Source: Turnera subulata (taxonomy: Eukaryota > Streptophyta > Magnoliopsida > Malpighiales > Passifloraceae). From it: a stretch of 64,000 nt of DNA. Each line of letters starts with the position of its first letter. The stretch's first letter is position 1. The stretch spans positions 23,690 through 87,689 of the forward strand of contig JAKUCV010000352.1 of the NCBI GenBank assembly GCA_028386065.3, given 5' to 3'. The notes beneath the pieces were generated by a model. It had not been told where the DNA came from. It ran no database searches and saw only the letters and a list, made by a program, of their open reading frames with translations. This document shows positions 3,055 through 63,803 of the stretch, piece by piece. The position numbers were made by a program, and so were the translations under genes.

Positions 3055-4193
3055 CTGATAATGGAGCACTGATGATTGGAGAACGGGTTTGTGTACCCAA
3101 TGTTAGCAGCTTGCGAAGTTAGATCCTGGAAGAAGGTCATATGACGCCATATGTGATGCATCCTGGAAGCACCAAGATGTATCAGAACCAGAAGAGTCAT
3201 TTCTGGTGGCCTCGTATGAAAAAGGATGTAGCTGAGTATGTTGCAAGATGTCTCACTTGCCAACAGGTGAAAGCTGAGCATCAAGCTCCAGTAGGAAAGT
3301 TGAGATCCTTGACAGTGCCAGAGTGGAAGTGGGAGATGATCACTATGGATTTTGTGATTGGTTTACCGATGACTCGGAGGCAGCATGATGCTATTTGGGT
3401 CATCGTTGATCGATTAACAAAATCGGCACATTTTCTACCTATCCGCCAAACTGATACCATGGACACATTGGCGAGTAAGTATGTTGCTGAGGTTGTGAGA
3501 CTACATGGGATTCCAAAGTCTATAGTCTCAGATAGGGATCCGAGGTTTACATCACGTTTCTGGAAGAGCTTACAAGCAGCTTTGGGAACTAAGTTAAGCT
3601 TCAGTACTGCTTTTCATCCTCAGACAGATGGACAGTCTGAGAGGACCATACAGACACTGGAGGATATGTTGAGGGCTTGTGCACTTAACTTTAGTGGGAG
3701 TTGGGATAAGTATCTACCCTTGGCAGAGTTTGCTTATAACAACGGCTACCATTCCAGCATTGGTATGCCACCTTTTGAGGCCCTCTACGGAAGGAAGTGT
3801 AGGAGTCCAGTGTGTTGGGATGAAGAAGGTATGAGACTGATCGTTGCACCAGAATTAGTCCAACAGACAGTGGACAAGATCCAGACGGTGAAACAATGTA
3901 TGAGAGCTGCTCAAGATCGGCAGAAGAGCTACGCCGACAAGCACCGATGAGAGATGGAGTACAATGTTGGTGAGAAGGTTTTCCTCAGAGTAGCACCTTG
4001 GAAGGGTGTGATTCGGTTCGGCAAAAGAGGGAAGCTGAGCCCGAGATATATCGGACCCTATGAGATCGTGGAGAGAAGTGGACCACTAGCTTACAGGTTA
4101 TCTTTACCTGACGAGCTATCACGTATTCATGACGTGTTCCATATCTCTATGCTGAGGAGATATCGATCGGACCTAGCCATATTGTGGCCCTAG
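3055..4193 (+). pseudogene. pol: integrase of Tekay-like pol
   Basis: Inserts the cDNA into the genome. The zinc-finger region is partly visible (TPYVMHPGSTKMYQNQ..., CLTCQQVKAEH near 3255-3285). The DDE core follows: WITMDFVIGLP-like region near 3340, VSDRDPRFTSRFW and FHPQTDGQSERTIQTLEDML with the final Glu. TGA 3948-3950 lies where HRREMEY would be expected, and the same frame continues with VGEKVFLRVAPWKGV and HVFHISMLRRY-like residues (here HDVFHISMLRRY) of the GPY/F module. Another stop ends this frame at 4191-4193. Confidence 0.9.
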
Positions 4194-18400: not shown

Positions 18401-18915
18401 CGAAACCAAAACACAGAGGAACAACATCAACCCACCAATTCGAATCCATCCACACCCCAAACACAACCCACACAATCAAAGGTAACACGATTCAATCGTC
18501 ACAGAGCCATAGCCGAGAGCACAGAACACCAAGACCCAATTAGCAACTGGTAGAGGTCGGGTTAAGAAAAGAAAAGAAAATAAAGAAAGGAAGAGGAAGA
18601 ATGTTCGGTGTTGCGTCTTACCCACACAGCCACGAGATCGGCGACGACGGGTGATGGATCGGTGGCGAGACAGAGACGCAGGAACAGGAAAAGGAAGAAA
18701 GGGAAGATGACGGCACTATGTTGCGGCGGTGGAGGAGGAAGGGTAGAGGAAGAAGGCAGAGACGATGGCAGCACACAAGGAACCCAACCCCGAGTTCCTC
18801 GTCCCTGTACCCGTCGCCCTCAAGCCTTTTCCTTTCTCTGGCAGCGGTGGCAGGGGCAGCTTCAAAACAGCAGCACGGCGACGCGATGGGTGGGTTGAGA
18901 CGGGGACGGTGAGAG

Positions 18916-20529
18916 TGTTAGAACTCATGGCTCATTACAGGTTTTGATAATTGACAAACCAATTCCAGTTCATGACAAAGATGAAGCAAAAAGAAATCAG
19001 CAAACCAATCCTCCAAGCAAATGAAGGCAAACCTATCAAGAGTAAAGGATCAATATAAAAGAGCACAAGAATTGAAGAGCCATGCAAGAAGAGTTAGATT
19101 CATAAATTGTACAGAGGGTAACACTCAACTCTTCTAAGTTATTGGCTCAAAATAAGATGAATTTTGCTCATGCATCACATAACATATTTCCAAGCATAAA
19201 AATGTTTTTCGAGCCATGAACATCGATGTTGTGGATTTAAACATCGATGTTCCTGCCTTTGAACAATCTTTCAAAACAGGCAGTAGGCTCAGAACATCGA
19301 TGTTGGATTCCTAAACATTGATGTTCTCATGACCGTTGCATTTGAAAATATTTTTACATGAGCAAAACATCGATGTTGGCTTTAGAACATCGATGTTGTT
19401 CAATGATCAGTTTTCATCTCATTTTCACAGAAGCAAAATAACATCGATGTTGTAAATTAAACATCGATGTTCTTCAATGATCAGTTTTCATCTCATTTTC
19501 ACAGAAGCAAAATAACATCGATGTTGGTTTTGAAACATCGATGTTCTTCACATGATGCTTTAAGTTAATTTTGCCGAATCAAATAAACATCGATGTTAAA
19601 TTACCCAACATCGATGTTCTTTCAATTGATGCCTTAAATCGAATTTCGCCGAAGCAAAATAACATCGATGTTCTTGAAGCAACATCGATGTTCCATGATG
19701 ATCAGTTTTAAAAGAATTTTGCCGAACCAAAATAACATCGATGTTCCAAAGATCATCAGTTTTAATTGATTTCGCCGAGCCAAAATAACATCGATGTTGG
19801 ATTGGCAAACATCGATGTTTTAGTTACCGTTAGTCCAAAAATTCAAATTTACTGGATAAAACATCGATGTTGTACCTTTAAACATCGATGTTTAGCCGTT
19901 GAGCAGACAACTTTTCAGCACCCATTATGTTTTGTCCAAAGCTGTTTCTTGAGTGGATTTTAAACGGCTCCATAATTTTTCAGAGCTATAAATTGAGCAT
20001 TTTCAGCCTTGATTAAAAATAATCAACTCTCTACATTCATGCTATTCATTCATACATACATTACAAATCTTAATTGAGCCAATATCCTTTGAGGATTGAG
20101 AGTTGCCTTTTTGAGCTTAAATTCTGTAACTCATATCTACTCTTGTGAGAGCCTTTGTTTGAGTGATTGTGTTGTTATATATCCTAAGGGAGGTTAGTTC
20201 CCTTGTAGCAGCTCATAGGAAGAGTGAGTTTTCTTTCCTTGAGAGAAGTCTTGAAGTGTGGTATCTTCAAGCAAGAGATTAGAGTTTCTTGTGATTAGAA
20301 CTCTAGGTTTGTAACGGTTTGTTAAGCACCCCTAAGCTTAACATAGCTAGTGGAATCTTCAAGAGAGTCTCTTAAAGGACTGGATTAGCCACACAAGTAG
20401 TGTGTGTGTGAACCAGGATAATTTCTCTTGTTCTTCATTGTTTAAATTCCGCATTTATTTCCTGCTTATTTCGTTTTAATCAGATAAACGCTATTCACCC
20501 CCCTCTAGCGTAGGGCTATTGTTCTAACA
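18916..20529 (+). repeat. 5' LTR of Sirevirus element
   Basis: A 1614-bp LTR starting TGTTAGAACTCATGG and ending CTATTGTTCTAACA. The centre (19219-19892) holds 19 copies of the palindrome AACATCGATGTT, 18 perfect and one with a single change. It is longer than the 3' LTR by exactly one 73-bp unit of that array. Confidence 0.95.
19219..19892. repeat. Tandem array of paired AACATCGATGTT palindromes
   Basis: The 12-base perfect palindrome occurs at 19219, 19240, 19293, 19314 (one mismatch), 19366, 19386, 19440, 19460, 19514, 19534, 19586, 19607, 19661, 19681, 19734, 19787, 19808, 19860 and 19881. Copies come in pairs 20-21 bp apart, and pairs recur every 72-75 bp. The copy at 19734 has lost its partner and the next step is 53 bp, about 20 bp short. 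The linker usually contains TTCGCCGAAGCAAAATA or a variant. Confidence 0.95.
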
Positions 20530-20545: not shown

Positions 20546-20584
20546 AACTCTCTGAAAGACTTAACCGTTTAAGAGAAACTTTTC

Positions 20585-22339
20585 ATGGCTTCTTCAAGTA
20601 ATTATGCAGGACTCTTCGAAGGACAATCCACTACTCGTCCACCGCTCTTTGATGGCACCAATTACAGCTACTGGAAGGAGAGGATGAGAATTTTCCTCCA
20701 ATCCAACAACTATGCTCTTTGGCGAATCATGAAGATTGGAGAGCAAATTCCGACGAAGAAAGTTGGTGAAATCACAGTGCCAAAGACGGAGGAGGAGTAT
20801 AACGCTGCAGACATTACGATGGTTGAAAACAATGCCAAATCAATCAACATGCTCTATTATGCAGTCAACCCCGATGATTACCGGAAAATCTCTTGCTGCA
20901 CAACCGCAAAAGAAATGTGGGATAAGCTGGAGGTCACCTACGAAGGAACCGATCAAGTTCGAGAGGCCAAAATCCACTCCCTCACTGCAGATTATGAACT
21001 CTTTCGAATGAAGGAGAACGAGGGAATAGAGGAGAAGTTCGAACGATTTTCTAAAATCGTAAATAACCTTCATGCTCTCAAGAAGGTCTACTTCGACAAG
21101 GACTTGGTCAGAAAAGTCCTTAGATGCCTCACTCCCGAATGGCGTTCTAAAGCCGACGCAATCTATGAAAACATCGGGACATCGAACACAACCATTGAAA
21201 GTCTTAGAGGTAATCTTCTAACCTATGAAGCCACTATTCTTAAGCCCTCTTTGCAGGAACCAAAGAAGAAGAACATAGCTCTCAAAGCTTCCACCTCCAA
21301 GACGCAAGAGTCGGACTCTAGCGATGACGATCAGGAACTTGGACTTGTCATCCGCAAATTCCATAAATTCATGAAGAAGGAATTTGTAAAAAAAGGGAGA
21401 AAGATGTCCAGAACACCCAAATGCTATGGGTGTAGAGAGATTGGGCACATCAAGCCCAAGTGCCCCAAAGCAAAGGAGGGAAAGGAGAAGAAGCCCTACA
21501 AGAAGCATAGGGCATACATCTCATGGGGAGGCGATTCCGGCGATGAATCATCCGATAGCGATGAAGGAGAAACGGCTAACCTATGTCTCATGGCAAGGGA
21601 AGAACCGGAAGAGGTAAGTACCACTTCTCCAAATGAAAATTTTACATATGAAGAATTGCAAAATGAATTTGATGAGCTTTATAGTGAATTCATTTCTATT
21701 TCTAAAGTTAACAAGAGTTTAAAGAAACAAGTTATAACTTTGGAAAAAGATATGGAAAATGTGTCCAATGAGAATAAGAATCTTAAGGAAGAAAATACGA
21801 CTCTAGACACACCCAAGGAATGTTTATCATGTGGCTCCTTAAAAGAACAAAATGAAAAATTAGCATGTGAGAATAGGAAGTTGAAGGATGAAAATAAGAT
21901 GCTAGAAAAGAAGAGTATAAAGGAATGTTCATCATGTATACCTTTAAGGAAACAAGTTGAACAACTTAAAACAACCTTGAAGAAGTTTAATACTCCTCAT
22001 AAAAATCTGAATTCTATGCTAGGTAATTTCCAATCTACTAGGCATGGAATAGGTTTTAGGAATGAACCTAAAAGACATAAAGTTAAATAAAAAAAACCTG
22101 AGGTACAACCTAAGGTAAACAAAGTGAGTAATGTGCATAAGTATAAGCAACATAGTAACTACTATCAACCTAGAAGAATGCATAACCCAAATGTCATTTG
22201 TCATTATTGCAATAGAATAGGACACATTGCTCCTGTTTGTTTCACTAGGCATAGGCATTGGGCTGAAGAAGAAGCTCATAACCACTATGCTCCTAACACT
22301 CAAGGACCCAAGAAGATTTGGGTATCTAAATCTCATTGA
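20585..22339 (+). pseudogene. gag: Sirevirus gag, one in-frame stop
   Basis: Encodes the capsid/nucleocapsid protein. The ATG at 20585 follows the primer site by about 40 bases and opens 501 codons: a UBN2-type Gag core (FDGTNYSYWKERM, KEMWDKLEVTYEGT), a CCHC knuckle CYGCREIGHIKPKCP near 21421-21465, an acidic stretch, then a Lys/Glu/Asn-rich coiled coil (about residues 355-480). TAA at 22088-22090 interrupts it. The same frame continues to 22339 and holds a second knuckle, CHYCNRIGHIAPVC, which Sirevirus Gag proteins often have. The 501-residue product may still be made, without its last knuckle. Confidence 0.88.
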
Positions 22340-27593: not shown

Positions 27594-27735
27594 AAAAGGG
27601 GGAAGATAAGAAGAAGTATATGCATCAAGATAGGGGGAATCATAATTTGAAAAATAGGGGGAATTATCTTTATGTTGAACCTATAAAAATTGGCATATAC
27701 TTCTAGTTGTTTGTCATTATCAAAAAGGGAGAAAT
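27594..27735 (+). other. Multiple polypurine tracts before Sirevirus 3' LTR
   Basis: Four purine runs precede the 3' LTR: AAAAGGGGGAAG near 27594, AGATAGGGGGAA near 27629, AAATAGGGGGAA near 27653 and AAAAAGGGAGAAA near 27722. Another AGATAGGGGGAA lies at 25625, before the nested insert. Repeated tracts in this position are known for Sireviruses. The last one is closest to the LTR. Confidence 0.7.
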
Positions 27736-29276
27736 TGTTAGAACTCATGGCTCATTACAGGTTTTCATAATTGACAAACCAATTCCAGTTCATGACAAAG
27801 ATGAAGCAAAAAGAAATCAGCAAACCAATCCTCCAAGCAAATGAAGGCAAACCTATCAAGAGCAAAGGATCAATATAAAAGAGCACAAGAATTGAAGAGC
27901 CAAGCAAGAAGAGTTAGATTCATAAATTGTACAGAGGGTAACACTCAACTCTTCTAAGTTATTGGCTCAAAATAAGATGAATTTTGCTCATGCATCACAT
28001 AACATATTTCCAAGTATAAAAATGTTTTTCGAGCCATGAACATCGATGTTGTGGATTTAAATATCGATGTTCCTGCCTTTGAACAATCTTTCAAAACAGG
28101 CAGTAGGCTCAGAACATCGATGTTGGATTCCTAAACATCGATGTTCTCATGACCGTTGCATTTGAAAATATTTTTACATGAGCAAAACATCGATGTTGGC
28201 TTTAGAACATCGATGTTCTTCAATGATCAGTTTTCATCTCATTTTCACAGAAGCAAAATAACATCGATGTTGGTTTTGAAACATCGATGTTCTTCACATG
28301 ATGCTTTAAGTTAATTTCGCCGAATCAAATAAACATCGATGTTAAATTACCCAACATCGATGTTCTTTCAATTGATGCCTTAAATCGAATTTCGCCGAAG
28401 CAAAATAACATCGATGTTCTTGAAGCAACATCGATGTTCCATGATGATCAGTTTTAAAAGAATTTTGCCGAACCAAAATAACATCGATGTTCCAAAGATC
28501 ATCAGTTTTAATTGATTTCGCCGAGCCAAAATAACATCGATGTTGGATTGGCAAACATCGATGTTTTAGTTACCGTTAGTCCAAAAATTCAAATTTAGTG
28601 GACAAAACATCGATGTTGTACCTTTAAACATCGATGTTTAGCCGTTGAGCAGACAACTTTTCAACACCCATTATGTTTTGTCCAAAGCTGTTTCTTGAGT
28701 GGATTTTAAACGGCTCCATAATTTTTCAGAGCTATAAATTGAGCATTTTCAGCTCTGATTAAAAATAATCAACTCTCTACATTCATGCTATTCATTCATA
28801 CATACATTACAAATCTTAATTGAGCCAATATCCTTTGAGGATTGAGAGTTGCCTTTTTGAGCTTAAATTCTGTAACTCATATCTACTCTTGTGAGAGCCT
28901 TTGTTTGAGTGATTGTGTTGTTATATATCCTAAGGGAGGTTAGTTCCCTTGTAGCAGCTCATAGGAAGAGTGAGTTTTCTTTCCTTGAGAGAAGTCTTGA
29001 AGTGTGGTATCTTCAAGCAAGAGATTAGAGTTTCTTGTGATTAGAACTCTAGGTTTGTAACGGTTTGTTAAGCACCCCTAAGCTTAACATAGCTAGTGGA
29101 ATCTTCAAGAGAGTCTCTTGAAGGACTGGATTAGCCACACAAGTAGTGTGTGTGTGAACCAGGATAATTTCTCTTGTTCTTCATTGTTTAAATTCCGCAT
29201 TTATTTCCTGCTTATTTCGTTTTAATCCGATAAACGCTATTCACCCCCCCTCTAGCGTAGGGCTATTGTTCTAACA
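27736..29276 (+). repeat. 3' LTR of Sirevirus element
   Basis: A 1541-bp LTR, TGTTAGAACTCATGG to GTTCTAACA, nearly identical to the 5' copy. Its palindrome array (28039-28638) has 17 copies, one imperfect. It lacks the unit equivalent to 19440-19512 of the 5' LTR, which accounts for the 73-bp length difference. Confidence 0.95.
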
Positions 29277-30229
29277 GAGAGGGCAGAGGGAAGAAGAAAG
29301 GAGAGGAATAGGGATCAGTCAAGGGTGTGAGGTCGGTGGCTCCGGTCGTTGGGTTGAAGGCAACGACGGAGGGGAGAGGAAGAAGGTGCAGTGGCGGCTG
29401 CTTGGGAAGTAGAGAAGAGAGAGGGGTCGCGTCTGGCGGCAGAGGCAGGGGAAAATGAAGAGATGAAGGAGGAAGAGGAAAATGAGAAGAATGGTGTGTG
29501 GAAACCGGGGAGGATGGAGGGGAAAATAAAGAGGAAAAAGAAAGAAAATGACAAAGAATAAAAAGAGAGAAGTGAAAGGGGTAAGGGCCGGCTAGGAGAA
29601 AAAAACGGGAGAAAGAGGGAGAGGGAGAGCATGTGTTGTCGGCAATTATTGGTGTCAATATATATATCATTTTAAATTTTAATTAATAAATTATTGGAGT
29701 AAATATTTTTGGCATAATATATTAAAAGTGCTATTAATGATGAAGATAATGTTAATATTTCCAGTAATAAAAATAACAATTTTTATAATGTTAATTGTCA
29801 AGATTTCCATAAAAGAAATCGTTATGAAAATTAACTAGAAATAGAAAGATTCTTTATTAGCTGCGATAAAATTTTATTCACCACCGTAAAAGTTAAAACA
29901 GCATGGTAAAAATCACGAAAATTTTACCCAGGTCGTTACATAATTCATCATTTTTTAATAAAAGTAATTGTTACTATAATAATTCTTAACTAAAATACCT
30001 AACAGACCAAATAAGATTCACAACTATAATACACATTTTAACCTACATAAAAGTTGAAATCATGTAAAATATAATAAATTGTAAACTTACTGGAAACCCT
30101 TCCTTCTTCTCAATAATCAACTTGTCCTGTGGACAAAGAGCATACCTAAATAAAGGAAGAAAAAAAAGTTTTAACCAAAAAAGAGGAAGGAAAAGGGAAA
30201 GAGGAAGAAGACGGGTGGTTGTGTATATC

Positions 30230-31282: not shown

Positions 31283-32374
31283 ATGGAACTAAAACTCGCG
31301 AAGAAAAACTATGAGGAAATTACACCCAAAAGTTTCCAAAGGTATGATCTCCTCCCAGACGACGCACTAAGACTGATCTTTTGAAAAACATCTTTTGTTG
31401 ATCATATTCGATTGAAACTGGTTTGCAAGAGCTGGAAAAGGGTATTAGATGGAGGAGATATTAGATCTACAAGTATATTGCCATGGATAATGTTCTATCG
31501 TTGGCGATCAGTCGCGGGTGATGAGGGGCTTGTTAAGGCTTTATGCAAACTATATGATCCATCACATCGCCAAACCTACACCTTAGAGGATGGGATCACA
31601 AATAGCAGATCAAAATTTGTGGACGCAGAAATTCTTGAGTCAAAGTATGGTTGGGTTCTCTTCCAAAAACTTACTTCCTTGTTCTTGTATTGTCCATTCA
31701 CTAGTGAGGTTATAGATATACCAAAACTAGAGCGTCATGCTATAGTTGCTACTCTAGCCACCTTCTCCTCTAATCCAACATCTGCAGGCTGCTTGTTCTT
31801 TGCTTTCGCGGGGGACAGCATCAGTTTATGTCGCCGAGGTGATCGGGCCTGGAAAACAATTCGAGTAGTGGATAGCGTTCTTGGGTCTTATTCCTTAAAC
31901 GGTGTGGCATATTCTAATGGATCCTTGTACTGCCTTTTTCATTACGGAGAACTAGGTGCTTTTAATGTTGCTACGGAGCAGTGGGATTTGCTTTTCGCTG
32001 AAGTATGGCAATACTCCTGTTGTCTTCTCGAATCTGATGGTCAGTTGTTTAGTGTACAGGTGGTCACAACTGAGTCCCATAAAAAGCCTGAGTACAGGAT
32101 TTCGAGGTTTGATTTCTCTGGCAGGAACTGGGTGCAGGGAGTGAGTCCTGGGCATCGTGCGGCTTTTACCAAAGCCGGGAGTAAACGTCTATCAATGTTC
32201 ATTCCGGCTGTGGGAGAAGCCACTCAACTTGCAGGTACACTAAACCAGTTATGCTCAACAATGGGACTAGTAGAGCACTATTCATTCAAGACCAATGAAT
32301 ACTTGCCGCAGCTGGATGCTTATTCTGAGGCTACATTCTCTACGGGTTCAGTTTTGATCCAACCCCCTAATTAG
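31283..32374 (+). pseudogene. F-box/DUF295 (KIB-type) protein, copy 1, single premature stop
   Basis: Family members are F-box adaptors of SCF ubiquitin ligases with a C-terminal DUF295 (KIB1-4) propeller-like domain. The frame runs 363 codons from the ATG at 31283. An F-box begins near residue 21 (YDLLPDDALRLIF...LKLVCKSWKRVL), followed by the DUF295 region (YGWVLFQK, SLFLYCPFTSEVIDIP, WKTIRV, GELGAFNVATEQWDLLF). Codon 34 is TGA (31382-31384) where copy 2 has TCG (Ser), so translation would end inside the F-box. Everything else looks intact, which suggests recent loss. A product initiated downstream would lack most of the F-box. No intron is evident. Confidence 0.85.
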
Positions 32375-39119: not shown

Positions 39120-39720
39120 GTACTAATACATTCAAGGATGCCCTTTCCAGGGGTACCTGCCGAGGTTCTTCCATATTGATGGGAACTTCACACTTAACGG
39201 ATGCCCTTTTCAGGGGTACCTACCAAGGTTCTTCCATGTTGATGGGAACTTCACACGTAACGGATGCCTTTTTCAGGGGTACCTACCGAGTTTATTCCAT
39301 GTTGATGGGAACTTCACACTTAACGGACGCCCTTTTCAGGGGTACCTGCCGAGGTTCTTCCATGTTGATGGGAACTTCACACTTAATGGATGCCCTTTCC
39401 AGGGATACCTGCAGAGGTTCTTCCATGTTGATGGGAACTTCACACTTAACGGATGCCCTTTTCAGGGGTACCTACCAAGGTTCTTCCATGTTGATGGGAA
39501 CTTCACACGTAAGGGATGAATTTTCAGGGGTACCTACCGAGTTTATTCCACATTGATGGGAACTTCACACTTAACAGACCCCCTTTTCAGGGGCACTAAT
39601 CAGGGATTTTCCATATTGATGGAATCCTCACACTTAACTACGCCCTTTCCAAGGACACTTATCAAGAATCTTTCATGTTGATGGGATCTTCACACTTGAC
39701 AGACACCATTTTGTGGAATG
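39120..39720 (+). repeat. 63-bp tandem repeat in Tat-like element
   Basis: The motif GGGGTACCTaCCaAGGTTC, then TTGATGGGAACTTCACACtT, recurs at 63-bp steps (for example at 39151, 39214 and 39277) about eight times before decaying. Because 63 is divisible by three, a 174-codon frame (39032-39556) reads through it as a 21-residue repeat. I regard that frame as a by-product. Confidence 0.85.
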
Positions 39721-39904
39721 CTCAAAAGGTTGTCCATCTCTTAATATGGTATGTACAAATCATTCAGGATGCCAGAAAATCACAAAGTGCGCAAAAGGCT
39801 TTCCCTGAAAATGGAGCCCCTCATAAATGAAAGGATGCTCATCTCTTAATGAGGCACCGTAACGAAATCCATCCATTCCCTGGTTATAGCAACGAAGGCG
39901 AAGA

Positions 39905-40560
39905 GGTGCCTAAAATAGACAACCCGTCGAGTGGTTCAAAACAGGGAGCCGTGGAGGTTCCCAAAACAAAGGCCAGGAGGTGCCCAACAAAGATAACCCA
40001 TAGAGTGGTTCAAAACAAGGACCCGTAGAGGTTCCCCAAACCGAAGGCCATGAGGTGCCCAACAAAGATAACCCATAGAGTGGTTCAAAACAAGGACCCG
40101 TGGAGGTTCCCAAAACGAAGGCCAGGAGGTACCCAACAAAGATAACCCATAGAGTGGTTCAAAACAAGGACCCGTAGAGGTTCCCAAAACGAAGGCCATA
40201 AGGTGCCCAACAAAAATAACCCATAGTGTGGTTCGAAACAAGGACCCGTGGAGGTTCCCAAAATGAAGACCAGGAGGTGCCCACAAAGATAACCCATAGA
40301 GTGGTTCGAAACAAAGACCCGTGGAGGTTCCTAAAACGAAGGCTAGGAGATACCTAGCCAAAAATAACCCATCAAGTGATTCAAAGCAAAGACTCTACGG
40401 AAGTCCCCAAAACGAGGGCCAGAAGGTGCCTAACCAAAAAAAACCTATCAAGTGGTTCAAAGAAAAGACCCTATGAAGGTCCCAAAATGAAGGTCAAGAC
40501 GTGCCCAACAAAGATCATCCATAGAGAGATTCTGAACCAAAACTCTACAAAGGTTTCAAA
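39905..40560 (+). repeat. 74-75-bp tandem repeat in Tat-like element
   Basis: A second, unrelated array with the core AGAGTGGTTCAAAACAAGG and GAGGTTCCCAAAACGAAGG repeats at 74-75-bp steps about eight times (40001, 40076, 40150 and onward), becoming more diverged after 40340. Apparent frames on the - strand are shadows of the repeat. Confidence 0.85.
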
Positions 40561-58879: not shown

Positions 58880-60012
58880 ATGCGAACGAGATCTTTATTG
58901 ACTATCGAAATTTAGAGAGTAATACAGTATGCACAGAGTACATGTATCAAACCAGGATACCATGCAAAAACATATAGCCTATCACAATGTTACAACACGC
59001 ACAGCATTCCTGTTGTTCACGGCTTTGCTAAATAAGAGAAATTTCGCTTGAAGCTTTTCCAATTCTTAATGCACTCTGCATTTGATAGAACAAGAGAGGC
59101 ACTGTATGGAAAGTTTACATGCATAGACCTTACCCAGGATATAGCGTGGACGAGAATAACATCGACTAACCTTTCCATGCTGCGTCTCTCATCGTTGAAT
59201 ATTCTCTGGTTCCTTTCAATCCACAGCGTCCACAGTGCTGCCATACCAATAATAAACCAGCAGGCTCTATTTTCGGAAGAGGGGGATAAGAATGTCCATT
59301 GCAGAAGGAAGTCATCCAACGATTCAGGGATACACCATGCAATTCCCCACCACTTACATAATCTACCCCAGATTTGCCAAGTAACAGGGCATCTCAGAAG
59401 CAAATGATCTCGCATTTCTATGTTAGAGTTGCAAAAAACACAAATAGAATTGGCGAGAGGGATGATACCTCGGTAGCAGAGTGCATCTTTGGTAGGGATT
59501 CCCCTGTGGATAGCAAGCCATAACCAACACTCAATTTTAAATGGGATTAGGGCTGTCCATACATAAGGTTTCTGGCTAGTAAGTCCAGCACTTTTATAGA
59601 TGAATTCCCTCCCATTCTTAAGCGCGATCAGCTGTCCAAAACCACTGGTCCTCTCCTCGTGTTTGGATGCTTATATCTGTTATCTCTGCCAAAATTGTTT
59701 CTACATCCAACAATTCCCAGTCCCACAATTGTCGTCTCCAACTAGTCATCCACCGGGATTGGGAACCTGCCTGTTGGAGGCAGCTGTACACTGTCAGCTC
59801 TTGGCACGAGGAGACAGCAAACAACCGTGGAAATCGATCTTTGAGTATCCCTTTTTCAGTCCAATTATCCTTCCAAAAACTAGCACGGTCACCCCTCCCA
59901 ACATGTATACAAGCTCCATCCATGAGTGCAATTTTGGACTGACTCTGCATACCACCAGAACGAGCAATATCCCTCCAAATAATTGATGCTTTCGACATAT
60001 CAAAGTATGGAT
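58880..60012 (-). pseudogene. LINE ORF2, C-terminal part with zf-RVT
   Basis: Reading from 59998 downwards: WRDIARSGGMQSQSKIALM, VGRGDRASFWKDNWTEKG, then a zinc-binding region IPTKDALCYRGIIPLANSIC, CVFCNSNIEMRDHLLLRCP and a final WIERNQRIFNDERR. This is the usual end of plant LINE ORF2. Two open stretches (59998-59618 and 59415-59017) are separated by stops or frame changes. Confidence 0.82.
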
Positions 60013-60040
60013 TATAGAAAGTGTGTAATGGCTCATCTTA

Positions 60041-60965
60041 GGGGTGTGAGGACAAGAAATACGATGAATAATACCATGAACACGAAAGTATTCTTGAAAA
60101 GCATGGTTAACAAATTCGCCACCACCATCAGATTGAAATGTCTTGATAGTGGTGTGAAACTGGTTGCGAACAAGGGCTGCAAAAGTTACAAAATGACGAT
60201 AGACCTCATTCTTTTGTTTCATCGGATAATTCCAGGAATATTTGGAATAATCGTCAAGAAACAAGACATAGTAACGAAAACCAGTATGTGAAGGAATCGG
60301 AGATTGCCAAACATCACTATGAATTAATTGAAACGGAAAGGTAGAGTGAGACACGGAGGAAGGAAAAGAAAGTTTATGATGTTTACCGAGTTCACAAGCT
60401 TGACAACAAATAGAAGGAGAAGCACTCCCATGACCAGAGACAAGACTTTTTGTAAAAAGAAAAGATAGAACATTGTTATTGGTATGAGCTAGATGTTGAT
60501 GCCACAATTGACGCGAGGACAAAGAGGTGGACAAGGCTGGATGAAGACGAGACGAACCGACGAAAGCATCACTGGATGAGATAGGATAAAGAGGGCCACC
60601 ACTAACGGAGTGAAAAAGGATGGTCTTGGTCGTCGGATCCTTCAAACAAAAACTAGAGTCAGTGAACTCAGCGACACACTTATTCTCACGACATAGCTGA
60701 CGAATAGACAGTAGGTTTTTACTTAAAGAGGGAACATAATATACTGTATGCAGAGGAAAAGTATGAGTAGAAGTAACTAATTGGGAAGTGCCAACAGCCT
60801 TAATGGGAAGAAGTGTACCATCTCCAACATAAATTTTATCAAGGCCAAGGTAAGGTTTAAAGGTGAGCAGCATACCAGAATTGTTAGTCATGTGAACAGA
60901 GGCACCGCTATCAGGGTACCAGGCAGTATCATGAATGGAAACAGCCGAGAGTGATTGTTGCGCGA
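60041..60965 (-). pseudogene. pol: Protease and truncated integrase of Ale-like element
   Basis: Protease motif AWYPDSGASVHMTNN near 60925; GAG-pre-integrase LWHQHLAHTNNN and CQACELGKHHKLSF; integrase core LIHSDVWQSP, FLDDYSKYSW and FQSDGGGEFVNHAF. The frame ends at ISCPHTP, where QQNG would be expected, because of the internal deletion to the LTR near 60040. Downstream codons to 59794 belong to LTR and LINE sequence. A frameshift separates it from gag. Confidence 0.88.
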
Positions 60966-62023
60966 GAGTGGGGGCAAGAATGCGCAATATGTCCAGGAGC
61001 ACCACAATACTGGCAGAAAGTGGACGAGAGGGGCGGTGCCACACCAAGAATACCAGAGTGAGAAGAAGATGGTGGTCGTGGGAAAGTAGGATAGTCGAGA
61101 CGAGGCTGGTAAAAGGAATTGTTATACCCTCGGTAATAGCCTCCACGGCGACCCCTGTCGCGGCCGCGTCCCTGAAAATTCCGGAAAGAACCAGCACGGT
61201 CCGTAGGATGCATAACAAGAGCAGCAGGACCTGTAGACTGAGAAGAAGATGGCGGGACAGAGGTACTAGAGGAAGCCGAAGGTGCAACAACTAGAGCAGT
61301 CGAAGTGGCAGTAACAGGGGTTGTGTCAGCCTGCTGGCGACTACTAACACGTGACTCAAAAGCCAGAAGGAGAGACCGAATATGAGTGAATGTCGGCAGT
61401 GGAGTTTGAGCAAGTAGAGGGTTAACAATGCTATCATACTCTGCAGGCAAACCATTAAGAACCTGAAGAACAAGAACACTCTCAGTAGGGTCAGAGTTAA
61501 TTGCCTTTAGGGAATCACGGAGAGTTTTTGCGTCAGTGAGATAAGAGTGCATCGTCTGAGTTGTTTTCTTGAGATTGTGGAAGCAAAGTTTGAGTTGATT
61601 TTGATTGGCAGAGGCATCATCCACATAGAGGCTGTGAATGGCATCCCAAATCTCACGAGCAGTATGAGAATCATCAACATCATAAACATGCGCAAGAACT
61701 TCAGGAGAAATTGTGGAATAAATCCAATTAAGAGCCATACTATCAGCTTGACACCACGTGGTATAGAGAGGATTGGGAGCATCGGGAGAAAGAAGTGCAG
61801 GAGGGCACGGGGTATCACCAGTGACATGCCCGTCAAGTTGATGGGCACGAAGAGCATTGAGGAAGATGCTTTTCCAGAGAAGGTAATTGGTGAGATCAAG
61901 TTGGACTTTCACAACCCGATGAATATCAAGAATTGTAGGGGAAGAGGTTGCAGAAAAGGTTGGACCAACTGTGGTCGAAGAAGAAGCTGGAGTAGAAGGG
62001 CTAGAGGGAGGAGGTGGTGCTAT
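60929..62023 (-). pseudogene. gag: gag of Ale-like element
   Basis: Reads VKVQLDLTNYLLWKSIFLNAL, AREIWDAIHSLYVDD and VLQVLNGLPAEYDSIV, a UBN2-type copia Gag. A Ser/Arg/Gly-rich stretch (GRGRDRGRRGGYYRGY) and a CCHC knuckle CQYCGAPGHIAHSCP near 61000 follow. The frame extends upstream of the first possible start to an ATA at 62023-62021, followed by APPPPSSPSTPASSS, so the original ATG has probably mutated. It ends out of frame with pol after the knuckle, where a single frame is usual. Confidence 0.85.
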
Positions 62024-62224: not shown

Positions 62225-63803
62225 TGGATTAAGAGCAGTATGTGCAATCTCACATTTACTCTTTATGAGGGTGTTCCAATCTTTCTCTTCAGGGTGAATA
62301 TACTTCCAGAGCCATTTAAATAAGAGGCACTGATTCATCATGTTCAGATCAATAATCCCCATGCCTCCTAGCTCACGTGGCAGTGCAATTTGTCTCCAAG
62401 CCACAAGGCATGCTTTTCTTGAATCATCCAGTCCCCTCCAGAAAAAATTCCTCATTAAAGATATTAATTTTTTGCCCACCACGATAGGCATTTGGAATAG
62501 GGACATAATGTATATAGGCAAGCCAGAGAGTACTGACTTGATAAGGGTAACCCGACCTTAAGCTTCGCGTGGAATTTTTCTACCACTGGTTGCCATGCCT
62601 TTCCTCTTTTCATATTAGCTCCAAGAGGGAGCCTGAGGTACGTGATGGGAAGAAATTCAGCCCTACTATGCGCCATATTGGCAATTTGTTGCACTCTGTT
62701 TTGCCTTAAGCTAATACCCACCATGCTGCTCTTTGAGAAGTTAATACTCAATCTGGAGAGCGCTTCAAAAATTCTCAAACATCGCTTAAGGTTCATAATC
62801 AGCCTATCCTCTGCAGGTGAGAATAATAATGTGTCGTCGGCATACTGGAGGATATTGACTTGGGTATTGTGTACGTCAATCGGCTTGGTGAGACCCAACT
62901 CATTAGCTTTTGCCAGGATAGATGGTAGTCCTCGGATGCCAAGTTAAATAGGTATGGGGATAAAGGGTCCCCCTGTTTCAAACCTCTCCCCATCTTGAAT
63001 TCTTCAGCCGGAGATCCATTCACGAGAGCCATCAAAGTTGACGTAGAGAGGCACTCTTTAATCTAGCGATGCCACCTATCTCCAAATCCCATCGCCTTCA
63101 TTACCTCCAATAGATAGCTCCAGCTGATTGAGTCATATGCCTTTCTGAAATCAATTTTCCACATGATGGCCTCAAATTTGTTTCTCCTCAAAGAATGAAC
63201 AATCTCATTTGCAAATAAGGCGCTATCCATGATGCTTCTGCCTTCAATAAAGGCCGATTGTTGATTTCCAATTAGAGAACTCCTAACCTTCTTGATGCGT
63301 CTCGATAATAGCTTTGAAATTATCTTATATATATAGGCCATTGATCAAAGTGATGGGCCTAAATTCATCCAGAGACTCGGCATCAGCTTTTTTGGCAATC
63401 AAAGTAATGTAGGCGATGTTGACTCCCTTAGGTAACCTGCCACTTTGATAAAAATTAGAGACCATATCAAACACATCAGATTTAATTAAATCCCAACATT
63501 TTTTATAAAATGTGAAGTTAAAACCATCGGGGCCAGGGGCCTTGGACCCATCACAATCCCATACAGCCTCCTTCACCTCCTCAAATGAGAATGGTCTTTC
63601 CAGCTCGGCACATGAAGACACATCAATCCACCTGAACGCAAGGGATCCAATTGAGGGTCTCGACATATCTGGGCATGAATAAAACTTGGTAAAAAAGTCA
63701 GTGATTTCCTCTTTAGTTGCAATAGGCTCAGACACCATCTGGTCACCAATCCTCAATTGCCCGATTTTGTTCTTCCTCCCCCTTATTCCGATCCTCAAGT
63801 CTA
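62225..63803 (-). pseudogene. LINE ORF2, reverse transcriptase domain
   Basis: Several frame pieces on the - strand carry L1-type reverse transcriptase blocks in order: AVWDCDGSKAPGPDGFNFTF and YITLIAKKADAESLDEFRPI near 63400-63560, IGNQQSAFIEGRSIMDSAL and MWKIDFRKAYDSISW near 63150-63270, MGRGLKQGDPLSPYLFNLA near 62960, and the catalytic ILQYADDTLLFS near 62840. MGIIDLNMMNQCLLFKWLWK follows near 62330. Frameshifts separate the pieces. Confidence 0.88.

What the first reader, a model, noticed from the sequence alone, without database searches (positions are those of the whole stretch)
19219..19892. Helically phased array of a 12-bp palindrome in Sirevirus LTRs
The 5' LTR holds 19 copies of AACATCGATGTT (18 perfect). 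Start-to-start distance within a pair is 20 or 21 bp, two DNA turns, and pairs recur every 72-75 bp, close to seven turns. The dyad is conserved while the linkers vary, as expected for protein-binding sites on one face of the helix. The two LTRs differ by exactly one 73-bp unit, so the array still changes length. Possible roles are an enhancer, an insulator, or a binding site for a host or element protein.
Basis: partly seen in the sequence, partly recalled or inferred. Interest (0 to 1): 0.78.

Follow-up and report, generated by a model that had tools for sequence, protein, structure and literature searches.

The report
Helix-phased palindrome arrays in plant retrotransposons
A young plant retrotransposon carries a row of near-identical 12-letter palindromes that almost always sit a whole number of DNA-helix turns apart, a pattern seen across this plant's genome and best explained as docking sites for an unidentified DNA-binding protein.

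Summary
The array is real: 19 boxes AACATCGATGTT (18 exact) in the 5' LTR, 17 (16 exact) in the 3' LTR, which lacks one 74-bp unit. The element is a young Sirevirus-type copia insertion.

The own genome (518.7 Mb) holds 76,101 exact boxes; the reversed word gives 63. Pairs of exact boxes by start-to-start spacing: 18-22 bp, 30,980; 23-28 bp, 68; 29-33 bp, 3,744; 34-39 bp, 855 (48 of 50 listed are 39 bp, apparently 21+18); 40-45 bp, 6,845. Counts above 45 bp could not be obtained. In sequence in hand, 82 distinct linkers peak at two, three, four and five turns with one exception. Linkers vary freely; the box is sharply bounded. Random spacing folds as RNA just as well, so hairpins do not explain the phasing.

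The box also arrays in a second, deeply diverged copia family, downstream of its TATA box.

Palindromic repeats in Sirevirus LTRs are known (PMC2829016). The phasing, and sharing by a non-Sirevirus-like family, I did not find in print. Protein binding is inferred; the protein is unidentified.

The parts
18911..18915 (.). target site duplication GAGAG, left
18916..20529 (+). 5' LTR, 1614 bp, TGTTAGAAC...GTTCTAACA
19219..19892 (.). array of 19 AACATCGATGTT boxes, 18 exact, within 1 bp of one 10.5-bp phase
19987..19992 (+). TATAAA, 95 bp after the last box
20498..20507 (+). C-rich signal near the LTR end (integrase signal of PMC2829016)
20530..20543 (+). ATTGG plus primer binding site TAGCGGAGC (2 of 9 differ from the Sirevirus 9-mer)
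20573..22090 (+). copia gag open frame, 505 aa
22353..25523 (+). copia pol open frame, 1056 aa (integrase, SH3, reverse transcriptase pieces)
27596..27735 (+). four polypurine-tract-like octamers and the AT before the 3' LTR
27736..29276 (+). 3' LTR, 1541 bp
28039..28638 (.). array of 17 boxes, 16 exact, one 74-bp unit shorter
29277..29281 (.). target site duplication GAGAG, right

Best explanation
The array is a homotypic, enhancer-like docking platform. Each 12-bp palindrome is one site for a dimeric, sequence-specific DNA-binding protein of the host plant. Neighbouring sites are kept a whole number of helical turns apart, so the bound dimers face one side of the double helix, where they can touch each other or present one surface to the transcription or chromatin machinery at the LTR promoter. 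Binding would switch the element on, keep it free of silencing, or both. Shown here: the boxes, their sharp edges, the whole-turn spacing, the variable linkers, and the box in two deeply diverged copia families on opposite sides of the TATA box. Inferred: that a protein binds, that it is a dimer, that it is a host protein, and that its effect is activating.
For: Genome-wide pair counts: 30,980 at 18-22 bp, 68 at 23-28, 3,744 at 29-33, 6,845 at 40-45. 82 distinct linkers give spacings 19-22 (43), 30-32 (3), 42-44 (7), 51-55 (28), 58 (1) and nothing in between. The window array keeps one 10.5-bp phase to within 1 bp over 662 bp; in 7 of 8 arrays tested at most 0.1% of 2000 phase-destroyed versions did as well. 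Box 1.67-2.0 bits per position against at most 0.35 bit at 19 of 20 flanking positions. CpG observed/expected is 1.39 in the array against 0.11 and 0.32 in the rest of the LTR, and 18 of 27 array CpGs are in boxes. The window family has the array 95 bp before TATAAA; the C8 family has it after its TATA-like sequence, near the LTR end (TATA by eye).
Against: No binding, expression or methylation data. No known plant factor was matched: a text search with the core returned 267 papers of which the 25 listed were looked at by title and abstract start only. Exceptions to the rule: an 18-bp spacing in one burst family that accounts for most of the 855 pairs at 34-39 bp, a 58-bp linker that is 6 bp longer than its relative, and the C3 array, whose resultant at 10.5 bp is only 0.46 (4.8% of phase-destroyed versions reach it). 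Long-range coherence beyond what the single spacings give is significant in the window array only (1.1% of order shuffles; 1 of 8 arrays). Copies of one burst are not independent, and bins from 46 bp up were not obtained.
Confidence: 0.6

Rival explanations
1. Architectural or insulator platform: the same phased protein sites, but the bound protein sets a chromatin boundary or loop that shields the element, as the Su(Hw) site cluster of the Drosophila gypsy element does (recalled), rather than activating its promoter.
For: A dense homotypic cluster, tolerance of position around the promoter, and possibly a leader position in L008 (a nested insertion is not excluded).
Against: In the window and C8 families the arrays stay within a few hundred bp of the promoter. 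No boundary data.
Confidence: 0.14
2. Target array of an element-encoded anti-silencing protein, as VANC proteins bind repeated short motifs in VANDAL transposons (PMC5735166, passages seen) and remove DNA methylation.
For: Dense, rapidly changing motif arrays in non-coding regions are what VANC targets look like; CpGs are kept in the array while the rest of the LTR has lost them.
Against: The window element has no other open frame of 120 codons or more on its coding strand besides gag and pol, and the box is shared by copia families with pol pieces only 34% identical. VANC motifs are not described as palindromic or phased in the passages searched.
Confidence: 0.1
3. RNA hairpin: paired boxes fold back in the transcript and are seen by the small-RNA machinery, as proposed for maize Sirevirus palindromes (PMC5311732 and PMC10760457, passages seen). 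Spacing is then a by-product.
For: Each of the eight pairs folded makes a 12-bp stem of -12.4 to -15.3 kcal/mol, and the whole array (-212.8) is far more stable than with scrambled boxes (mean -137.0, sd 17.5, 60 runs).
Against: Boxes at random spacing fold as well or better (mean -221.1, sd 5.5, 60 runs), so folding does not ask for whole-turn spacing. RNA hairpins give no reason for separations of three, four and five turns. Each copy is itself a dyad and single boxes also keep phase (19734). The C8 family has the boxes downstream and the window family upstream of the promoter, so they would lie at opposite ends of the transcript (inference).
Confidence: 0.07
4. No function: a tandem repeat that grows and shrinks by slippage or unequal exchange, with spacing inherited from an ancestral unit.
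For: Unit gain or loss is seen (74 bp between the LTRs), some neighbouring units are close copies (91%), and most long linkers are of one length class. Since insertion boxes changed no slower than the rest of the LTR (2/204 against 12/1335).
Against: Inherited units would keep linkers as well as boxes, yet linkers differ widely between families and often between neighbours while the 12 bp stay fixed. Other spacing classes lie at one-turn steps and hardly between them. Of two aligned relatives with unequal length one differs by 20 bp; by eye two more differ by 30 and 11 bp. The other aligned case, 6 bp, is a counter-example.
Confidence: 0.05

Closest known systems
Sirevirus LTR repeated motif (RM) boxes, Bousios et al. 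2010 (PMC2829016; sections 7, 9-13 and 19 read)
   Same: Many near-identical palindromes clustered in the LTR upstream of a TATA box and rich in CpG; at least eight copies per element.
   Different: All but one published RM have a CGG-CCG core; this box has ATCGAT. The paper gives no spacing rule in the passages searched and calls the RM absent from classic copia elements, whereas here the box also arrays in a family that fails Sirevirus marks.
RM box ACAATCGATTGT of tobacco Tnd-1 (Table 3 of PMC2829016)
   Same: Twelve-bp palindrome with ATCGAT centre, no env gene, boxes only in the LTR.
   Different: Outer half-sites differ (ACA/TGT against AAC/GTT); 8 copies against 17-19; spacing of the Tnd-1 boxes was not available to me.
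Maize Opie/Ji/Giepum palindromes CACCGGACNNNGTCCGGTG as small-RNA hotspots (PMC5311732, PMC10760457, passages; the 2016 source paper was not held)
   Same: Palindrome cluster in the LTR of Sireviruses, able to fold in RNA.
   Different: Other sequence; explained there through secondary structure, whereas the phasing here points to double-stranded DNA.
VANC target motifs of VANDAL transposons (PMC5735166 passages, PMC10398659 abstract)
   Same: Dense short-motif arrays in transposon non-coding DNA that change quickly and are read by a sequence-specific protein.
   Different: DNA transposons with their own binding protein; motif YAGTATTAY, arrayed in one orientation, not a palindrome.
Heat-response element of ONSEN/Copia78 (PMC3907296, passages)
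   Same: A copia LTR that recruits a multimeric host factor (HSFA2) to its promoter.
   Different: A heat-response element in the LTR rather than up to 19 separate dyads; the factor is known there.

Membership tests
Sirevirus (window element) | AT dinucleotide between terminal PPT and TG of the 3' LTR | tested here: met
   GGGAGAA-AT-TGTTAGAAC; rule
Sirevirus (window element) | several identical PPT octamers upstream of the 3' LTR | tested here: inconclusive
   Four PPT-like octamers at 27596, 27631, 27655, 27725, but not identical; three further weaker hits up to 2.1 kb upstream
Sirevirus (window element) | ATTGG between LTR end and PBS TATCAGAGC | tested here: inconclusive
   ATTGG present; PBS reads TAGCGGAGC, 2 of 9 different
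Sirevirus (window element) | C-rich signal about 21 bp before the LTR end | tested here: met
   CCCCCCTCTA at 20498-20507, 22 bp before the end
Sirevirus (window element) | inverted repeat around the PPT/3' LTR junction | tested here: inconclusive
   The script (no gaps allowed) found only a weak 14-bp pair; by eye TTTGTCA-TTATCAAAA before the junction and TTTTGATAATTGACAAA in the LTR match with one base of gap
Sirevirus RM boxes | palindrome, at least eight copies, clustered in the LTR upstream of TATA | tested here: met
   19 and 17 copies, TATAAA 95 bp after the last box
Sirevirus RM boxes | CGG-CCG core signature | tested here: not met
   Core is ATCGAT; the published exception is Tnd-1
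Sirevirus RM boxes | cluster forms a CpG island | tested here: inconclusive
   CpG observed/expected 1.39 but G+C only 0.34; CpGplot was not run
Sirevirus RM boxes | restricted to Sireviruses | tested here: not met
   C8 family: pol piece 34% identical, PPT runs straight into TG without AT, no C-rich LTR-end signal found
VANC-type anti-silencing target array | dense repeated short motif in non-coding transposon DNA | tested here: met
VANC-type anti-silencing target array | bound by an element-encoded protein that removes methylation | not testable with these tools
   No methylation or binding data; no extra frame of 120 codons or more on the coding strand of the window element

The most novel reading that the evidence does not exclude
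Unrelated copia retrotransposon families in one plant have converged on, or exchanged, the same 12-bp dyad and the same whole-turn spacing rule, building phased platforms of up to 19 sites that recruit one host DNA-binding complex able to read helical phase over hundreds of base pairs. With some 76,000 exact sites in the genome, this complex would be a main shared lever for activating, or escaping silencing of, the plant's retrotransposons.
Probability: 0.3. Interest if true: 0.85.

Novelty: new variant of a known kind. Interest (0 to 1): 0.62.

Why it matters
What Sirevirus palindromes do has been open since 2010: cis-regulatory sites, or RNA hairpins seen by the small-RNA machinery. Whole-turn spacing separates these readings, because only double-stranded DNA has a helical phase. 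If it holds in maize, barley and tobacco elements too, the question moves from 'hairpin or binding site' to 'which protein', and the arrays are a ready bait of up to 19 copies of one site. A factor shared by unrelated retrotransposon families would be a common control point for much of a plant's mobile DNA.

Tried and rejected
RNA hairpins as the reason for the spacing: rejected as main cause. Pure tandem duplication: rejected as main cause. Nucleosome-surface phasing: best periods of single arrays run from 10.34 to 10.58, nearer to free DNA (10.5) than to nucleosomal DNA (about 10.2, recalled); not tested further. A third family from L008 was not claimed: its array (2120-2801) lies between the 5' LTR and the coding part of another copia element, but ATTGG at 1958 and 2924 could be the target duplication of a nested insertion; ATTGG is frequent there, so this is weak either way. 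A box pair with an 8-base linker was sought in IMG/VR viral contigs: 0 found. The plant was not identified; named pol relatives among the 120 listed of 7990 are from many plants, at 39-80% identity over varying coverage. Text searches for the box (listing only), its core with plant factors (25 of 267 listed), Tnd-1 or ATCGAT with retrotransposons and helical phasing or spacing of retrotransposon motifs showed nothing that describes this box or its phasing. A sample of contig ends was poor: 8 of 20 stretches were at least 30% N (3 wholly N) and 1 of 20 held an array; of 4 further control stretches none did (L009-L012).

Unfinished: genome-wide counts for 46-50, 51-55 and 56-61 bp were asked for and never answered. 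A genome-wide test of the L008 boundary and a count of the Tnd-1 box were planned and not run. One of my notes says 49 of 51 for the 34-39 bin; recounted it is 48 of 50.

Full report
The finding. The window lies in a 518.7-Mb assembly (C316:23690-87689); its retroelements are of plant type. The 5' LTR of a copia element at 18916-20529 carries 19 copies of AACATCGATGTT between 19219 and 19892, 18 of them exact; the 3' LTR at 27736-29276 carries 17, 16 of them exact. A target duplication GAGAG flanks the insertion. The LTRs differ by 14 substitutions in 1539 aligned positions and by one 74-bp unit; K is 0.0092, about 0.35-0.65 million years at rates of 1.3 and 0.7 x 10^-8 (recalled). The frames are copia gag and pol. 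Of the Sirevirus marks in PMC2829016 (sections 7, 9-13 and 19 read), AT/TG and the C-rich LTR-end signal are met; several PPT-like octamers, the ATTGG/PBS junction and the junction inverted repeat are present but imperfect.

How far it goes. The own genome holds 76,101 exact boxes, against 63 for the word read backwards. Pairs of exact boxes by start-to-start distance: 18-22 bp, 30,980; 23-28 bp, 68; 29-33 bp, 3,744; 34-39 bp, 855; 40-45 bp, 6,845. Reversed-pattern controls were 15, 0, 1, 0 and 5. The 34-39 bin seems mostly not to be neighbours: 48 of 50 listed places are exactly 39 bp and most come in couples shifted by 21 bp; on C23, where it could be checked, they are the sum of a 21 and an 18. 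So one burst family with an off-phase 18-bp spacing exists. Likewise 5 of 50 listed in the 40-45 bin are 40 bp, which on C50 is 21+19. Of the 50 listed per bin, 18-22 splits into 21 (35), 20 (12) and one each of 18, 19 and 22; 23-28 into 23 (31) and 19 others; 29-33 into 30 (21), 31 (14), 32 (15); 40-45 into 44 (18), 42 (15), 43 (12), 40 (5). Weighted by bin totals and leaving out the 34-39 bin, the mean cosine at 10.5 bp is 0.87. The lists are the first places in contig order, not random samples.

Independence. Copies of one burst are not independent, so I also counted distinct linkers in the sequence in hand: 11 arrays (two in the window, one each on C3, C12 and C50, six on C8), 82 distinct linkers. 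Spacings are 19-22 (43), 30-32 (3), 42-44 (7), 51-55 (28) and 58 (1); nothing lies in between. The 39 linkers of 15 bp or more form 19 similarity groups. Among 32 similar couples 30 differ by 0-2 bp in length, one by 20 and one by 6; the last gives the off-phase 58. By eye two more couples differ by 30 and 11 bp. Treating 8 of the 11 arrays as wholes (near-duplicates left out), the resultant at 10.5 bp ranges from 0.46 (C3) to 0.98 and the best period from 10.34 to 10.58. In 7 of 8 at most 0.1% of 2000 phase-destroyed versions reach the observed value; on C3 4.8% do. The window array stays within 1 bp of one phase across 662 bp, which 1.1% of order shuffles match; the other 7 do not stand out in that test.

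What is conserved. The 12 positions carry 1.67-2.0 bits; 19 of 20 flanking positions carry at most 0.35 bit. The mismatch spectrum is bimodal. CpG observed/expected is 1.39 in the array and 0.11 and 0.32 in the rest of the LTR; 18 of 27 array CpGs are in boxes. Between the two LTRs boxes changed no slower than the rest (2/204 and 12/1335): constraint seems to act on replicating lineages, and each inserted copy then decays freely.

Not only Sireviruses. On C8 (L006/L007) arrays of 4-8 boxes belong to a different LTR; in the element with both LTRs seen (TGTTGATTG...GCCAACA, L006 1235 to about 6586) the boxes fill the last 150-220 bp of the LTR, after a TATA-like sequence (by eye), followed in the 5' copy by ATTGGTAGCAGAGC and a gag frame. 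Its pol piece is 34% identical to the window's; its PPT runs straight into TG without AT, and no C-rich LTR-end signal was found. So the box lies before the promoter in one family and after it in another. L008 may show a third setting, in the leader of another copia element (25-26% identity), but a nested insertion is not excluded.

Mechanism. Helical phase has meaning only in double-stranded DNA. RNA folding of the array is strong, but random spacing folds as well or better. A palindrome with sharp edges, kept at whole turns, most simply means dimers lined up on one face of the helix. Sharing of the site by diverged elements points to a host protein. Tolerance of position around the promoter points to enhancer-like action; an insulator or an anti-silencing role is not excluded. 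All steps from 'a protein binds' onward are inference.

Against the known. Sirevirus LTR palindromes were described in 2010 (PMC2829016): at least eight copies, upstream of TATA, CpG-rich, CGG-CCG core except for tobacco Tnd-1 (ACAATCGATTGT). The present box fits that kind apart from the core, and its centre is like Tnd-1's. New, as far as the searches show, are the whole-turn spacing rule at genome scale and the box in a non-Sirevirus-like family. PMC2829016 was searched for 'spacing', 'helix' and 'distance between' and no passage speaks of box spacing. The maize palindrome paper of 2016 was not held, so what it says about spacing is unknown to me; only papers under open licences were searched.

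Noticed in passing
G000:C23:17019-17090 and places listed: A burst family with boxes at 21, 18, 21 bp: the main off-phase exception, worth asking whether those boxes are still active.
   Followed up: partly
G000:C924:21499-23967: Three LTR starts at regular 1090-bp steps (21499, 22589, 23679): perhaps tandem LTRs from recombination.
   Followed up: no
L008:1960-2120: By eye a run of short inverted repeats with small loops just before the box array in the leader of a copia element.
   Followed up: no
19619-19660 (and long linkers in L006/L007): Several long linkers carry CGCCGAA / TTCGGCCGA-like words, recalling the CGG-CCG core of other Sirevirus boxes; seen by eye.
   Followed up: no
39136-39697 and 39891-40526: Two neighbouring tandem repeats, 63 bp x 9 and 74 bp x 8.6.
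   Followed up: no
31385-32374: Open frame with a KIB1-4 beta-propeller domain, likely a host gene of the plant F-box/KIB type.
   Followed up: no
3123-3950, 59794-61290, 62464-62943: Other retroelement pieces: a zinc-binding integrase frame, a second copia pol piece on the minus strand, and an RVT_1 match below its cut-off.
   Followed up: no
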